Positions 9,867 through 33,216 of a DNA stretch of 35,784 nt are shown in pieces. The DNA is from an uncultured Bacteroidales bacterium (lineage in GTDB: Bacteria; Bacteroidota; Bacteroidia; Bacteroidales; Paludibacteraceae). Position 1 is the first letter of the stretch, and each line of letters opens with the position of its first letter. A model generated the notes under the pieces. It was not told the origin of the DNA. It made no database searches and was given only the letters and a program-made list of their open reading frames with translations. Location of the stretch: positions 1 to 35,784 of the forward strand of contig ONJT01000025.1 in assembly GCA_900318245.1 (NCBI GenBank), written 5' to 3'. The position numbers were made by a program, and so were the translations under genes.

Positions 9867-10623
9867 CAAGCAGAGCTGCAAATTGCTCTGCTTTTTTTAT
9901 CTCATCTATTTTTCCGACATCCATCATCTTGTAAGCGTTCGGGATGAACGCTTTTAATGATGAGTGAATGATGGAATGATGGAATGATGGAAGTATACTC
10001 AGATAGAAATCTATCAACGAGAATTTCTCTTGAGGCATCTTCGCTAAGAGCGCCAAAACCTCCGGACTGAGAATCTGCATGCCGGAGAAGGCGAGTTTTT
10101 GGAAATTGGAGATTGAAGATTGGAGATTGGTAGGACGCACTTCGCCGGTAGCGATATTCGTCCAGCCGCATAGGCAGTCTCTCTCATCGAAGCAGAGATA
10201 GCGCTGAGTCTTTCTTTCGCTCACCACCAACTGACTAATGCCGGTACGCTCATATTCAGCGATTAGCGCACGTATGTCGATATTGCTTAATATATCTACA
10301 TTGCAAGCGAGGATTGGTGTAGGGTGTAGGGTGTAAGGTGTAAGGGCTTTCTTGAGGCCACCGCCGGTGTCGAGGAGTTGGTCGCGCTCGTCGGAGATAG
10401 TGATGTTACAGCCCCATCCGTCGTTCGCGCGAACGGTTTCGATGATCTGGTCGGGAAAATGGTGCACATTGACGATGATATCGGTGATGCCGGCTTCGCG
10501 TAGTTTCTCCACCTGCCACTGCAGCAAAGGTTTGCCGGCCAGCGGTACCAGCGCTTTCGGCATCGTGTCCGTGAGGGGTTTGAGGCGCGTGCCAAGGCCC
10601 GCACAAAAGATCATCGCTTTCAT
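9832..10623 (-). CDS. MurU-like sugar-1-phosphate nucleotidyltransferase
   Basis: This 263-aa NTP-transferase makes an NDP-sugar from a sugar-1-phosphate. The signature GLGTRLKPLTDTMPKALVPL is at residues 9-28, and the metal-binding Asp is in ACNVDIL near 108-114. Following a kinase and a RapZ domain, it resembles the AmgK-MurU pair that activates salvaged N-acetylmuramic acid to UDP-MurNAc; the substrate is inferred. Its ATG overlaps the RapZ-domain stop by 4 bp. The family normally ends shortly after a WxDVG-like motif (here MMDVG). The last 23 codons here are the antisense of the tRNA-Lys terminator and the tRNA itself (tail VSPEGLEPSTH). Three degenerate repeat tracts are embedded in frame, near 9965-9990, 10107-10132 and 10316-10348. 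Confidence 0.85.
   Translation of the reverse strand: MKAMIFCAGLGTRLKPLTDTMPKALVPLAGKPLLQWQVEKLREAGITDIIVNVHHFPDQIIETVRANDGWGCNITISDERDQLLDTGGGLKKALTPYTLHPTPILACNVDILSNIDIRALIAEYERTGISQLVVSERKTQRYLCFDERDCLCGWTNIATGEVRPTNLQSSISNFQKLAFSGMQILSPEVLALLAKMPQEKFSLIDFYLSILPSFHHSIIHSSLKAFIPNAYKMMDVGKIDEIKKAEQFAALLVSPEGLEPSTH
9869..9898 (+). terminator. Terminator of tRNA-Lys
   Basis: AGCAGAGC (9869-9876) pairs perfectly with GCTCTGCT (9885-9892), followed by a run of seven T. It also encodes, on the other strand, part of the C-terminus of the nucleotidyltransferase. Confidence 0.9.
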
Positions 10624-15382: not shown

Positions 15383-16756
15383 ATGAAAAAGTATATAGTA
15401 TTCCTTTGGATTTGTCTGCTGAGCGTAGGGATGCAGGCTGTCAATCCGTCCGGAACACTGCCGGTCGTCTATATGACGACGAATAGCGGTCAGGCGATCA
15501 CGGACAAAGAGAACTACGTACCCGGCACGGTATATATCGACCCGCTGAGTACGAGTTATGCGGCGTTGGGTTCGAGCAGCGCTCCGCTCACGGCGCAACT
15601 GAAAGGACGCGGTAACTGGACCTGGTCCGGATTCGACAAAAAACCCTATAAGATCAAGTTCGACGCCAAGCAGAAAGTGTTAGGCATGCCGAAGAACAAG
15701 CACTGGGTGCTGATAGCCGGCGCCGACGACTGGTTGGGCTATCTGAAGAACCCCGTAGGATTCATGATCAGCAAGGCGTTGGGTCTTCGATGGACACCGG
15801 GGATCGTGCCGGTAGAGTTGGTACTGAACGGCAACTACCAGGGACTCTATTTCCTGACCGAACATGTGCGTGTCGATAAGAACCGCGTGAACATCCAGGA
15901 ACAGGAAGACCTATGTACGAATGCGGATAGCATCACCGGCGGATGGATGGTAGAGATAGACAACTACTGGTCGGAGAACAATATCGAGTTCAACGAGAAT
16001 AACGGTCAGCACGTCATGGTATCGTTGGATGTGCCGGAAGTGCTCTCCAGCGTGCAGCGCGACTATATCGTTCATCAGATTGAGGCGCTCAACAACGCTA
16101 TATACGGCAACAGTTCCGCCACACTGGAGCAGATCCTCGATATCGAAGAGGCGGCTAAGTTCTACCTCGTGCAGGAGATCATGGAGGATTGCGAGAGTTA
16201 TCACGGCAGTTGCAAGCTCTATAAAGACCGCGACAGCCTGGGTATGGTGGACAAATGGAAGTTCGGTCCTGTATGGGATTTCGGCAATGCCTACGACCGC
16301 CATGCCGAGCGATGGATATACGATGGTCCGACTTGGCCGCAATACTGGATAGGACAACTCGCCACATGGCCTGTTTTCCAAAAAGCGGTCAAAGAACAAT
16401 GGTGGATCTACTATCATCAGTACAAAGACACAATCAAGCAGCAGGCGATTGATTTTGCGAACCAGCTGACCGAGGCCGCCAAGCGCGACGCGCAAGTATG
16501 GGAGGGCACCTCTAACTTCCGCAATAACAGCAATATGACCGACCGACGGAATGATTTCATCGACCGCTATAACTGGCGTATTAACTGGCTCTATAAGCAA
16601 TGGGGCGAAGGTATTCCGCCCACGACTGAGAGTTTAGAGTATAAAGATGAGAGTTTAGAGAATAAGACACAAAAGATTTTGCGGGACGGAAAGATGATTA
16701 TTCTTCGAAACGGAAAAACTTATACAGCGTCGGGGACGCTTGTTGGTGATTTGTAA
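15383..16756 (+). CDS. Secreted CotH-kinase-like protein with T9SS-type tail
   Basis: This 457-aa protein starts with a signal peptide (MKKYIVFLWICLLSVGMQA, cut before VNPSG). It carries the CotH fold: KGRGNWTW, KKPYKIKFDAKQKVLGMPKN, HWVLIAGADDWL, ELVLNGNYQGLYFLTEHVRV and KWKFGPVWDFGNAYDR. CotH proteins in spore formers are atypical protein kinases; in Bacteroidetes they are secreted proteins of mostly unknown role. The C-terminus (ILRDGKMIILRNGKTYTASG) resembles the short tail of the large protein at the right end of the window and suggests type IX secretion to the surface. The GTG at 15374 is a less likely start. A tract near 16627-16665 encodes a repeat-like ESLEYKDESLENK linker before the tail. 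It lies 22 bp after sulP. Confidence 0.88.
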   Translation: MKKYIVFLWICLLSVGMQAVNPSGTLPVVYMTTNSGQAITDKENYVPGTVYIDPLSTSYAALGSSSAPLTAQLKGRGNWTWSGFDKKPYKIKFDAKQKVLGMPKNKHWVLIAGADDWLGYLKNPVGFMISKALGLRWTPGIVPVELVLNGNYQGLYFLTEHVRVDKNRVNIQEQEDLCTNADSITGGWMVEIDNYWSENNIEFNENNGQHVMVSLDVPEVLSSVQRDYIVHQIEALNNAIYGNSSATLEQILDIEEAAKFYLVQEIMEDCESYHGSCKLYKDRDSLGMVDKWKFGPVWDFGNAYDRHAERWIYDGPTWPQYWIGQLATWPVFQKAVKEQWWIYYHQYKDTIKQQAIDFANQLTEAAKRDAQVWEGTSNFRNNSNMTDRRNDFIDRYNWRINWLYKQWGEGIPPTTESLEYKDESLENKTQKILRDGKMIILRNGKTYTASGTLVGDL

Positions 16757-16812
16757 TTTGAAATTTGTAATTTATAATAACCCTTTTTATTAACCTTTTA
16801 ATTATTTATCTT

Positions 16813-29755: not shown

Positions 29756-30526
29756 GTTTGCCTTGTGGGCGGCTTTCTGCGTTAAGATACGTTGTAAGCG
29801 CGTCATCTGCGCATTGCGATAACGATTCTTTCGCACGTCTTTCCCGGTCAGAATTTCATACCATACGCACGCCGCCGTATAACGGCCATAGACGTAGTTC
29901 AGGTGGTAGCCGTCACGGCATAAGGTATCTCCTAATTTCGTGTGTCGCGCATTCTGAATAGCGCTTCCACACGGAATTATTTGTAATTGGTGATTGGTAA
30001 TTGGTATTTGGGTGCAGGCCTGAATGCTATCCCACATGACCTGCTGGCTCGATTGGTAGCGCGGATAAGCGGGGTGCTTGGCATCCTTGCTATACGCCCA
30101 GGTCTGCATCCAACAGAGTTTGGCATCCGGTTGGTAGGCCCGCACGGTGTCGATGAGCATCGTGAGCCAGGGTTCGTACGTATTACGTATCCCGCTGTCA
30201 TGACTCGCCTGCTGCAACGATATGATGTCGTACTGGCCGTCGCACAAAGCTTGTCTTAGACTAATGGTATCCTTTTCCACTCTTCCCTCCGCATTGGTGC
30301 ACACGCGGTGCGAATATGCGGCTGTGTCTTTCGCGAGAAATTCCGCATGTTGCTGCAATGAGCAACCGCCGTAGTAGATGTTATGCACCTCCACTTGTAC
30401 ACCACTGGCGTCGCATAAAGGCACCAGTTCCTGTTCTACCGCATCCCAAGAAAACGAGTTTCCGATACACAGGACGCGGATGACTAATATGATGTTAATG
30501 AGCTTCAAGCCAGTTCTTGCCGACAC
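29741..30526 (-). CDS. DUF4886 protein (SGNH-hydrolase-like)
   Basis: This 261-aa protein has the DUF4886 pattern: VLCIGNSFSWDAVEQ near residues 18-32 (block I Ser in GNSFS), IISLQQASHDSG, and DGYHLNYVYGRYTAACVWYE near the C-terminus carrying the D-x-x-H type catalytic pair. It is probably an esterase acting on sugars or other acyl groups. The only upstream start is a GTG at 30526 that overlaps the polA 3' end by 32 bp; the hydrophobic N-terminus is too short for a confident signal peptide. A degenerate ATTGGT-type repeat (29981-30012) encodes CTQIPITNHQLQI. The last codons (KKSR and stop) lie in the tRNA-Arg terminator. Confidence 0.83.
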   Translation of the reverse strand: MSARTGLKLINIILVIRVLCIGNSFSWDAVEQELVPLCDASGVQVEVHNIYYGGCSLQQHAEFLAKDTAAYSHRVCTNAEGRVEKDTISLRQALCDGQYDIISLQQASHDSGIRNTYEPWLTMLIDTVRAYQPDAKLCWMQTWAYSKDAKHPAYPRYQSSQQVMWDSIQACTQIPITNHQLQIIPCGSAIQNARHTKLGDTLCRDGYHLNYVYGRYTAACVWYEILTGKDVRKNRYRNAQMTRLQRILTQKAAHKANKKSR

Positions 30527-32831
30527 CGCAGTCAGCGATCAATGGGATAGACAGATGAACGGCGTTCTGCATCTCGGATACCACGATCTCCCGCACGCGC
30601 TCCACTTCCGCCTCGGGCACGTTAAAGTTCAACTCGTCGTGCACCTGCATGATCATCTGCGCCTTCAGCCCTTCTTCTTTCAACCGGCGATGAATCGCTA
30701 CCATGGCTATTTTGATGATATCGGCTGCTGTGCCCTGAATCGGCGCATTGACGGCATTGCGCTCGGCAAAAGAGCGCACCGTAGCGTTATTCGAAAGGAT
30801 ATCCGGCAAGTAACGCTTGCGGCCAAAGAGGGTCTCGGCAAAACCGCGTTCGCGCGCAATCTCTTTCTGCTTCTCTATATAACGAATCACGCCAGGGAAG
30901 GCCGCAAAATAATCATCAATCAGTTGACGCGCTTCGGCACGCGGGCAATCGAGTTGCTGCGCGAGGCCGAAGGCTGAGATACCGTAGATGATACCGAAAT
31001 TGGCGGTCTTGGCCTTACGGCGCTCATCTTTATTGATCTCTTCAATGGGTTTCCGGAAGATACGCGCTGCCGTCGCCGCATGGATGTCTTGTCCGGAGCG
31101 GAAAGCGTGCAGCAGATGTTCGTCTTTACTCATGTGTGCAAGAAGACGTAATTCAATCTGACTATAGTCCGCGCTGAGGAACAGACATCCCTCGTCCGGA
31201 ATGACTGCCTCACGAATCAACTTACCGCGCTCGGAGCGAATAGGTAGATTCTGCAAGTTCGGATTGCTGCTGCTCAGTCGCCCCGTAGCTGTCACCGTCT
31301 GGTTATATGTCGTATGGATCTTTCCGTCCGCTGCAATATACCCGGGAAGTGCGGATATATAGGTTGAGATCAGCTTGCTCAATGCTCTATAGTCAAGAAT
31401 TGCGCCGACCACGGGGTGCTTTTCCTTCAAAGCGACCAGCACTTCTTCAGAAGTCGAATACTGCCCCGTGCGGGATTTCTTAGCCTTGTCGTCGAGCTTG
31501 AGTTTCTCGAAGAGCAGTTCGCCAACTTGCTTCGGGCTGTTGATATTAAACGGCTCACCGGCAAGTTCGTAGATGCGTTGCTCGAGGGTGGTGAGTTCTT
31601 CGGTCAGCGTCGTCTCCGCCTCATGCAGTTTGTTCACGTCGAAGCGCACACCTGCGGCCTCCATCTCGCGCAATACCGGCACCAAAGGCAACTCGACGTC
31701 GTTGTATAAGTTCCACAGGTCCGCATCCGCTTTCAGCGCCGCCCAGTTGGGTTCGACCTCAGGATTGAAGGCCACCTCCGGATTGAGGAGGTACTGACAG
31801 AGCCGGTTCTCGATGGTGTCGTAGGTCGGAGTATTCGGAATATTCGGAATATTCGGAGTATTCGGATCTTCAGCGAAGGCGCCGAAGAGATCTAACTGAT
31901 TCGGATCGGCGGGTTTGGACTTTTTCGGAGTATTCGGAGTATTCGGAGCACTCGGAGTACTTTGAGTACTCTGAGGGAGTTTCTTGAGCAGGGTGTTGAA
32001 TTCCAGTTCACGATAGAGCTCAGTAAGCGCCTCGAAGTTGGGTTCTTTCTTCGCCAAGAGCGCCTCGTCCAACGCAATGGGCACATCCGTGCGAATGGTA
32101 GCGAGAAAACGAGAGAAGCGGATATCCTCCACCTGACTCTCCACTTTGGTACGTAGCGCGCCTTTGATCTCGTCGGTATGCGCGAGCATGTTCTCTATCG
32201 AGCCAAACTGTTGCAACAGCGCCACAGCGGTCTTCTCGCCTACCCCTTTGCAACCCGGGATATTATCACTCGCATCACCCATCAGGCCCAAGAGATCAAT
32301 CACCTGCGCCTTGTCTTGCAGGCCGTATTTCTCGCATACCTCTTTGGGTCCCATCACTTCAAAACCTCCGGTATGGCGCGGGCGGTACATGAAGATATGC
32401 TCGCTCACCAGTTGGCCGTAGTCCTTATCCGGCGTAGCCATGAAGACCTCAAAACCGGCTTCTTCGCCCTGCTTAGCGAGTGTGCCGATGACGTCGTCGG
32501 CCTCAAAACCAGGTACTTCAAAGGCCGGTATATTCATAGCCTCTAATAGTCGCTTTATCACCGGTACGGCTTTGCGAATATCCTCCGGCGTCTCTTCGCG
32601 CTGCGCCTTATACTGCTCGTATGCCTCATGACGGAAGGTACCGCCCTTCGGGTCAAAGGCCACACCGACATGCGTCGGATTGACTTTCTTTAACAGGTCA
32701 TCCAGCGTGATGGCAAAACCGAAGATCGCCGAGGTGTTCTCCCCTTTGCTGTTCATGCGCGGCGCGCGGATAAAAGCGTAGTACGCGCGAAAAATCATCG
32801 CGTAGGCATCGATAAGAAGCAGTTTTTTCAT
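30495..32831 (-). CDS. polA: DNA polymerase I lacking the 3'-5' exonuclease domain
   Basis: PolA fills gaps and removes RNA primers. From the ATG at 32831 it is 778 aa, against about 930-950 in Bacteroides. Residues 1-285 form the 5' nuclease (DAYAMIFRAYYAF, then EADDVIG and DKDYGQL). Residues 286-337 are a Pro/Asn/Thr-rich linker of repeats such as PNTPNIPNIPNTP. Only about 45 residues separate the linker from the polymerase domain (from about 375, DLWNLYNDVELPLVPVL), where a 180-residue exonuclease domain should be. No DxE exo I motif is present. The polymerase is intact: TATGRLSSSNPNLQN, motif A DYSQIELR at 555-562, O-helix RRKAKTANFGIIYG, motif C VHDEL at 730-734, and the usual NWLEAH end. 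It should polymerise but not proofread. Confidence 0.95.
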   Translation of the reverse strand: MKKLLLIDAYAMIFRAYYAFIRAPRMNSKGENTSAIFGFAITLDDLLKKVNPTHVGVAFDPKGGTFRHEAYEQYKAQREETPEDIRKAVPVIKRLLEAMNIPAFEVPGFEADDVIGTLAKQGEEAGFEVFMATPDKDYGQLVSEHIFMYRPRHTGGFEVMGPKEVCEKYGLQDKAQVIDLLGLMGDASDNIPGCKGVGEKTAVALLQQFGSIENMLAHTDEIKGALRTKVESQVEDIRFSRFLATIRTDVPIALDEALLAKKEPNFEALTELYRELEFNTLLKKLPQSTQSTPSAPNTPNTPKKSKPADPNQLDLFGAFAEDPNTPNIPNIPNTPTYDTIENRLCQYLLNPEVAFNPEVEPNWAALKADADLWNLYNDVELPLVPVLREMEAAGVRFDVNKLHEAETTLTEELTTLEQRIYELAGEPFNINSPKQVGELLFEKLKLDDKAKKSRTGQYSTSEEVLVALKEKHPVVGAILDYRALSKLISTYISALPGYIAADGKIHTTYNQTVTATGRLSSSNPNLQNLPIRSERGKLIREAVIPDEGCLFLSADYSQIELRLLAHMSKDEHLLHAFRSGQDIHAATAARIFRKPIEEINKDERRKAKTANFGIIYGISAFGLAQQLDCPRAEARQLIDDYFAAFPGVIRYIEKQKEIARERGFAETLFGRKRYLPDILSNNATVRSFAERNAVNAPIQGTAADIIKIAMVAIHRRLKEEGLKAQMIMQVHDELNFNVPEAEVERVREIVVSEMQNAVHLSIPLIADCGVGKNWLEAH
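31831..31975. repeat. Degenerate GGAGTATTC repeats inside polA
   Basis: Two blocks (about 31831-31867 and 31925-31975) consist of a 9-bp unit related to GGAGTATTC/GGAATATTC. Both are in frame and encode the NTPNIP-type and STPSAPNTPNTP linker segments. The same unit appears in the trmH-family gene at 26188-26226. Confidence 0.8.
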
Positions 32832-32969: not shown

Positions 32970-33216
32970 ATTTAGAAGCGAGACAAGCAAATCGTCTAAT
33001 TTGTAGGAATTATTATACTATAAGAATAAGGATGTTAGGGTGATCTTAGGCTGAGCTGCCTTTGATCACCCTTTCAGCACCCATTGAGCACCCTTTTGGA
33101 CCAGGTGGAAACAAGGTGGCGAATGGGAGGCGGACACAGATACAGGTAATAAAAAAACGCGGATAGTAGCATTGTGACAAACAAAAAATAGGCGACTCAG
33201 ACGAGCCGCCTATTTT
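32970..33216 (+). ncRNA. Candidate small RNA between polA and the surface protein gene
   Basis: The stretch read from the orphan promoter has no usable reading frame (the first ATG is followed by only two codons). It can form a two-part hairpin: AGGGTGATC 33037-33045 with GATCACCCT 33064-33072 and, inside it, AGGC 33048-33051 with GCCT 33058-33061. A second pairing is CCCATT (about 33082) with AATGGG (about 33123). It ends in the bidirectional terminator at 33185-33216. Transcript ends are predicted, not shown. Confidence 0.4.
33185..33216. terminator. Bidirectional terminator
   Basis: AAAATAGGCG (33185-33194) pairs perfectly with CGCCTATTTT (33207-33216), with CTC/GAG pairing in the loop. 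On the minus strand it ends with T6 and closes the surface protein gene 18 bp downstream of its stop. On the plus strand it could end the RNA candidate. Confidence 0.85.

What the first reader, a model, noticed from the sequence alone, without database searches (positions are those of the whole stretch)
30495..32831. DNA polymerase I with its proofreading domain deleted
Seen: the 5' nuclease and polymerase domains are intact, but only about 45 residues lie between the linker and the polymerase, where Bacteroides PolA has a 3'-5' exonuclease domain of about 180 residues. Known: even Taq and Bacillus PolA keep a vestigial domain there. Inference: an in-frame deletion, perhaps at the repeat-rich linker, made a compact non-proofreading PolA. 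Loss of editing could favour slippage, and this genome is full of slippage-like repeats.
Basis: partly seen in the sequence, partly recalled or inferred. Interest (0 to 1): 0.85.

Follow-up and report, generated by a model that had tools for sequence, protein, structure and literature searches.

The report
Pol I that shed its proofreader
A group of Bacteroidales bacteria carries a DNA polymerase I whose error-correcting domain seems first to have died, then shrunk and finally been cut out, while a short tag that may clip the enzyme to the replication clamp was kept.

Summary
The gene at 30495-32831 (-) encodes a 778-aa Pol I with 5' nuclease and polymerase domains and no 3'-5' exonuclease domain. 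It is not an assembly error: 54 of 64 sampled same-genus genomes, the window's own included, have the short form. It did not arise by one clean deletion. On PolA trees of 146 and 159 rows the short forms are one clade inside relatives whose domain has lost its DEDDy residues and part of its length. One other record, L056, shows a separate near-excision. One helix remains.

The best-kept feature was missed: QLDLF (31884-31898), the consensus sliding-clamp-binding pentapeptide, in the disordered linker. A [DSN]LF core is in 46 of 46 rows of the clade, with Q two places before it in 26, inside hypervariable linkers. Similar motifs are in most other Bacteroidota Pol I read. One eroded lineage has its motif inside the decayed domain.

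Best reading: a clamp-tethered, non-proofreading nick-translating Pol I. Clamp binding is untested. A general link to slippage is not supported.

The parts
30495..32831 (-). polA, 778 aa, two-domain DNA polymerase I
32037..32825 (-). 5' nuclease (FEN-like) domain, residues 3-265
   Evidence: Pfam PF02739 and PF01367
31833..31967 (-). disordered linker, residues 289-333, pLDDT under 50
   Evidence: AlphaFold2
31884..31898 (-). QLDLF, residues 312-316: proposed sliding-clamp-binding motif
   Evidence: consensus from PMC12309361 passage
31924..31959 (-). 9-base tandem repeat, 4.0 copies, on the nuclease side of the motif
   Evidence: TRF
31826..31866 (-). 9-base tandem repeat, 4.6 copies, on the polymerase side of the motif
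   Evidence: TRF
31785..31814 (-). remnant helix of the exonuclease domain, residues 340-349, in the conserved RLCQYLLNPE stretch
   Evidence: AlphaFold2; alignment to relatives with the domain; conservation in 46 rows
31728..31745 (-). short helix 363-368 leading into the polymerase; this stretch aligns with Taq and Klenow from residue 363 on
30504..31634 (-). polymerase domain, residues 400-776
   Evidence: Pfam PF00476; D555, R604, K608, Y616, D732, E733 invariant in 46 rows

Best explanation
This is the only Pol I found in the genome, reduced to a 5' nuclease and a polymerase joined by a disordered linker. In an ancestor shared with at least two neighbouring genera the 3'-5' exonuclease lost its catalytic residues. 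The domain then eroded, and at the base of one subclade of the genus it was cut down to a single helix that may still pack on the polymerase. The linker keeps a QLDLF-type motif. I propose that it clips Pol I to the beta sliding clamp left behind on finished Okazaki fragments, so that the polymerase fills the gap and the nuclease removes the primer without 3' editing. Shown: the domain state, the nested series, one main excision, one separate near-excision in a single record, and conservation of the motif. Inferred: loss of proofreading activity, clamp binding, and the role in Okazaki maturation.
For: No exonuclease domain by profile or by model. Short-form clade of 46 rows (45 of the remnant class plus L030, whose long middle is linker only): SH-aLRT 98 with 146 rows and 99 with 159 rows. 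It lies in a clade of 57 rows with no intact member, SH-aLRT 100 in both trees. L056 groups with three intact rows (SH-aLRT 97). Motif [DST]LF in the linker: 46 of 46 remnant-class rows (the 45 plus L056; shuffled mean 1.5), 57 of 62 intact (3.5), 11 of 14 inactive full-length (0.7), 15 of 24 eroded (1.1). In the 46-row clade: L 45, D 44, L 46, F 46 of 46, written with 6 Leu, 2 Asp, 5 Leu and 2 Phe codons, against mostly 2 to 3.8 bits of amino-acid entropy on either side. Other Bacteroidota: Q.[DST]LF in 22 of 29 loci outside the order, and Q..LF or Q..MF in 28 of 29 by eye; [DST]LF in the linker of 13 of 13 further loci of genus g32. The genome has a DnaN and the same pentapeptide in a Y-family polymerase. 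One Pol I hit in the genome, which is 92% complete.
Against: No binding or activity was measured. Q stands first in only 26 of the 46 rows of the clade (T in 17, V in 3), and positions 1, 4 and 5 matter most in E. coli (PMC12309361 passage). The codon table was anchored on [DSN]LF, so zero entropy at the last L and F is by construction, although every row had the core. Rows are related, so shuffles overstate independence. No such motif in the linker of L095 or L096 (inactive) or of the 3 acidobacterial rows; no Q..LF in L183. The trees are quick ones with SH-aLRT only (54 of 143 inner branches weak). In one search a 58-row group with L141 of genus g32 also had no intact member (89), but it fell apart when 13 more g32 loci were added, 8 of them intact. 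L056 is a single draft record. A DLF-type motif could serve another partner.
Confidence: 0.72

Rival explanations
1. A clean one-step in-frame deletion removed an active proofreading domain, by slippage between linker repeats, and made a mutator lineage.
For: Repeats flank the motif in the window's linker, and 20 short-form stretches carry more tandem arrays than 10 stretches of other genera of the family.
Against: The nearest relatives already lack the DEDDy site and have shorter domains. Linker repeats vary from species to species while the short form is shared. Array density is not raised in 5 other short-form loci or in two other inactive lineages; single inactive or near-excised loci scatter from 0.5 to 8.1 per 10 kb.
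Confidence: 0.06
2. Assembly or binning artefact: the contig lost 400-500 bases.
For: The genome is a draft of 56 contigs.
Against: Short form in 54 of 64 sampled same-genus genomes and in the named records L051-L055.
Confidence: 0.01
3. The domain is gone and the DLF-type motif binds another partner, or is kept for another reason.
For: No binding data exist, and the first residue varies.
Against: It matches the published clamp consensus. It is held with varied codons at a variable distance (13 to 43 residues) from the helix, recurs in other Bacteroidota, and the same pentapeptide is in a Y-family polymerase of this genome.
Confidence: 0.18
4. A separate exonuclease gene took over editing for Pol I.
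For: The genome has one stand-alone PF01612 protein and two PF00929 proteins.
Against: Stand-alone PF01612 proteins also occur in other families of the order whose Pol I is intact, such as G038, G040, G043, G054, G055, G057 and G058.
Confidence: 0.05

Closest known systems
Pol I orthologues with an inactivated exonuclease (PolA1 of Timinskas et al. 2026, PMC12926913)
   Same: Pol I with 5' nuclease and polymerase but without a working DEDDy site; the paper reports substitutions in the site for about half of PolA1 (section 15 read).
   Different: Here the whole domain is gone except one helix. Section 15 and the passages I saw mention no such removal; supplements and figures were not seen.
Taq and Bacillus Pol I
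   Same: Same order of parts; Taq is the best match in the PDB by sequence and by fold. Lack of proofreading there is general knowledge.
   Different: They keep a folded vestigial domain (general knowledge). Here no such fold is modelled.
PolA2 / APEX of Actinobacteria
   Same: Inactive exonuclease and a QxxLF clamp motif; [quoted passage not shown]
   Different: PolA2 lacks the 5' nuclease domain and carries the motif in a loop of the vestigial domain. Here the motif is in the linker of a Pol I. The L049 lineage has its motif inside the decayed domain.

Membership tests
DNA polymerase I (PolA1) | FEN-like 5' nuclease domain at the N-terminus | tested here: met
   PF02739 E 9.2e-58, PF01367 E 1.7e-31
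DNA polymerase I (PolA1) | A-family polymerase with catalytic residues | tested here: met
   PF00476 E 7.5e-162; D555, D732, E733 invariant in 46 rows; their catalytic role is recalled
DNA polymerase I (PolA1) | whole-protein Pol I equivalog score | tested here: met
   NF004397 982 bits (cut-off 720), TIGR00593 931 bits (cut-off 600)
[quoted passage not shown]
   no PF01612, no fold
Vestigial-exonuclease Pol I (Taq, Bacillus type) | folded but inactive domain in the middle | tested here: not met
   one helix and one short helix only
PolA2 / APEX | no 5' nuclease domain | tested here: not met
   nuclease domain present
Sliding-clamp-binding proteins | QL[S/D]LF or QxxLF motif | tested here: met
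   QLDLF at residues 312-316; consensus from a PMC12309361 passage
Sliding-clamp-binding proteins | motif in a flexible stretch | tested here: met
   pLDDT under 50 from 289 to 333
Sliding-clamp-binding proteins | measured binding to DnaN | not testable with these tools
   no complex was modelled or assayed

The most novel reading that the evidence does not exclude
Pol I of the phylum Bacteroidota is a clamp-tethered enzyme through a QxxLF motif in the linker behind its 5' nuclease. Keeping hold of the clamp is under stronger selection than proofreading: the motif persists, and in one lineage sits at a new place, while the exonuclease dies several times over, shrinks and is twice all but cut out.
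Probability: 0.65. Interest if true: 0.72.

Novelty: new variant of a known kind. Interest (0 to 1): 0.6.

Why it matters
It lays out the steps of domain loss in a core replication enzyme among close relatives (active, inactive, eroded, excised). It offers a natural Pol I without a proofreading domain for fidelity work. If the clamp motif is real, it gives a specific, testable anchor for how Pol I may find Okazaki fragments in a whole phylum, where the 2026 survey named only PolA2 as a bacterial A-family polymerase with such a motif.

Tried and rejected
Higher single loci exist among inactive or near-excised rows (L072 8.1, L057 4.1, L056 3.2 per 10 kb).

Replacement exonuclease: PF01612 searched in 61 genomes, matches in 57 (Pol I domains included). 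Stand-alone copies occur beside intact Pol I. PF00929 gave two proteins in the own genome; their partners were not studied.

Hidden vestigial fold at 338-380: rejected by the model. A PDB sequence search of residues 334-410 aligned only from residue 363 on, so calling helix 340-349 the old YLLxPE helix rests on the alignment to relatives.

Inactivation shared with genus g32: one g32 row (L141) joined the clade without intact members (58 rows, 89). I then read 13 more g32 loci: 8 intact, 5 inactive, and the wider group broke up. The claim now stops at the 57-row clade (g1 with g33, read from 2 genomes, and g34, from 1).

Motif behind the helix: [DST]LF behind the helix also occurs in 23 of 62 intact rows. 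All 23 lie 4 residues before the end of the middle, at the start of the polymerase, whereas those of the L049 lineage lie 42 to 60 residues before it. The 'anywhere' counts are therefore not used.

Own-genome motif scan: 13 matches to a DNA pattern for Q[LF][DSNG][LF]F against 12 for the reversed control, so the count is background. Exact QLDLF was in 4: PolA, a Y-family polymerase, a topoisomerase subunit A-type protein, and a 218-aa frame that I did not identify. The Y-family protein scores best with a UmuC model (269 bits) but under its cut-off of 431, and the topoisomerase piece is cut by the locus end (594 bits, cut-off 780).

Wider survey of the short form: all 147 other genomes of the phylum sample gave two or more separate pieces, and the listed frames were 907 aa or longer (match list cut). 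Of 165 genomes of other genera in the family sample, 8 had no match, 1 (G158) one weak match, and no listed hit was uninterrupted (list cut). Both are samples.

Rows dropped from the tree: L062 (broken frame) and three duplicates, L054, L076, L136. State borders of 140 and 225 aa are mine, and 'intact' is defined as DEDDY in five alignment columns. L030 was classed eroded by length and moved by content. G001 and G020 are contig-end fragments and were not classed. My linker cut was too short for L039, counted as a miss.

Literature: (47 and 71 returned no paper). I found no report of an excised Pol I exonuclease or a Bacteroidota Pol I clamp motif. Only open-licence papers are held; I saw listings and starts of abstracts, passages of PMC12926913, PMC6010275 and PMC12309361, and one whole section (15) plus the abstract of PMC12926913.

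Full report
What is there. The minus-strand gene at 30495-32831 encodes a 778-aa Pol I. Profiles find the two parts of the 5' nuclease and the A-family polymerase, and nothing in between. Whole-protein Pol I models score above their cut-offs. It is the only hit of its kind in the genome, a 56-contig draft of 2.26 Mb, 92% complete. AlphaFold2 gives residues 289-333 as disordered, a helix at 340-349, a short helix at 363-368, then the polymerase; there is no strand in that stretch. Foldseek returns Taq, M. smegmatis and Bacillus Pol I at the top.

Is it real. One search covered the window's genome and 36 of its genus, a further sample of 35 with 8 in common: 64 genomes in all. By uninterrupted hit and frame length, or by reading the sequence (G007 = L033 and G008 = L030), 54 are short-form. 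Eight have a longer middle (G011, G013, G019, G023, G024, G028, G217, G239), and all 8 read as eroded. Two are contig-end fragments. L051-L055 are short forms in named public records; the title of L051 names dairy cattle rumen. An assembly error is excluded for this clade.

How it arose. I collected 150 PolA rows, dropped one broken frame and three duplicates, and kept 146: 62 intact (DEDDY in five alignment columns), 14 full-length but without it, 24 eroded, 46 remnant. On a tree built without the middle one clade of 46 holds 45 remnants and L030, whose long middle is linker only (SH-aLRT 98). It lies in a clade of 57 rows without an intact member (100). A first, wider group of 58 with one row of genus g32 (89) did not hold. 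Adding 13 more g32 loci, 8 intact and 5 not, gives 159 rows; the 46-row clade then has 99, the 57-row clade 100, and the g32 rows fall outside. With L030 counted as short-form, the short form needs 2 changes and intact against not intact 12. So in this lineage the site was lost first, the domain shortened, and it was then cut out, while inactivation also happened several times elsewhere. L056, one yak-rumen Bacteroidaceae record of 810 aa, groups with three intact rows (97) and is a separate near-excision. Its model keeps a small strand-helix piece at 331-381. It is one draft record and not confirmed elsewhere.

What stayed. All 46 rows of the clade keep YLL and, three residues on, E, in a stretch that aligns with the AHYLLxPE helix of the full domain. 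The helix may pack on the polymerase; I had no coordinates to check.

The linker motif. Residues 312-316 read QLDLF. The clamp-binding consensus is QL[S/D]LF or QxxLF (passage of PMC12309361). In the linker, [DST]LF occurs in 46 of 46 remnant-class rows, 57 of 62 intact, 11 of 14 inactive and 15 of 24 eroded, against shuffled means of 1.5, 3.5, 0.7 and 1.1; with Q in front, 26, 52, 7 and 8. In the 46-row clade the residues L, D, L, F stand in 45, 44, 46 and 46 rows with 6, 2, 5 and 2 codons, while most positions on both sides vary freely; the next residue is A or G in 45 of 46. The distance from motif to helix runs from 13 to 43 residues, as expected of a linear motif. L026 carries four tandem PDLF copies.

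Wider. Of 30 loci returned by the phylum search (the best-scoring of 148 genomes), one was the window itself. The other 29, 24 from other orders of the class and 5 from other classes, have Q.[DST]LF in 22, and by eye Q..LF or Q..MF in 28; whether their domain is intact was not read. All 13 new g32 rows have [DST]LF in the linker, and by eye 9 of the 13 have Q..LF. Six rows of one lineage (L049, L058, L122, L126, L127, L128; SH-aLRT 100) have no [DST]LF before the helix and one behind it, 42 to 60 residues before the polymerase and inside the decayed domain. The 23 intact rows with a hit behind the helix have it at the very start of the polymerase. A loop of the vestigial domain is where PolA2 of Actinobacteria carries its motif (section 15 of PMC12926913). 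The three acidobacterial rows have none. Other phyla were not sampled.

Same motif elsewhere in the genome. A DNA pattern scan gave 13 matches, no more than the reversed control (12). Four are exact QLDLF: PolA, a Y-family polymerase nearest to UmuC models, a topoisomerase subunit A-type protein that ends in it, and an unidentified frame. DnaN is present and matches solved clamps along its length; its pocket was not checked residue by residue.

How it works, most likely. Clamps remain on DNA behind the fork (general knowledge). The linker motif would hold Pol I there; the polymerase fills the gap and the 5' nuclease removes the primer. In E. coli the loaded clamp slows Pol I nick translation and raises its cutting of short flaps (passages of PMC6010275, its abstract among them). 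Without an exonuclease there is no Pol I editing. Apart from the anatomy and the cited E. coli work, this paragraph is inference.

What was known. [quoted passage not shown] I found no report of full removal of the domain from a Pol I, or of a clamp motif in Bacteroidota Pol I, within the limits given under Tried and rejected.

Slippage. Array density was 3.05 per 10 kb in 20 short-form stretches, 2.36 in 10 eroded and 1.15 in 10 from other genera of the family (the domain state of the last ten was taken from frame length, not read). Only short-form against the last group differs (p 0.003). In the second set, 8 and 5 loci of two other inactive lineages and 5 short-form loci do not differ from 51 intact loci. 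I do not uphold the link.

Noticed in passing
L153 (own genome, G000:C10:20496-20510 -): A DNA gyrase/topoisomerase IV subunit A-type protein ends exactly in QLDLF, a possible clamp-binding tail.
   Followed up: partly
L157 (own genome, G000:C30:88203-88217 -): A Y-family polymerase, nearest to UmuC models but under their cut-off, carries QLDLF about 55 residues before its end.
   Followed up: partly
L049, L058, L122, L126, L127, L128: One Bacteroidales lineage has its DLF/SLF motif inside the decayed exonuclease domain instead of the linker.
   Followed up: partly
L237-L249 (genus g32): Within one neighbouring genus, 8 of 13 Pol I read as intact and 5 as inactive, so proofreading is being lost there too.
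   Followed up: partly
L026:1501-3873 (-): Four tandem PDLF copies in the Pol I linker, which would multiply the proposed clamp motif.
   Followed up: no
L072:8001-10634 (+), Leyella stercorea DSM 18206: A named strain with a Pol I (878 aa) that lacks the DEDDy pattern and the stretch with the third motif.
   Followed up: no
window 10099-10130, 16749-16778, 29978-30011, 33067-33096: Short tandem arrays of 7 to 14 bases scattered through the window, 16 arrays in 35.8 kb.
   Followed up: partly
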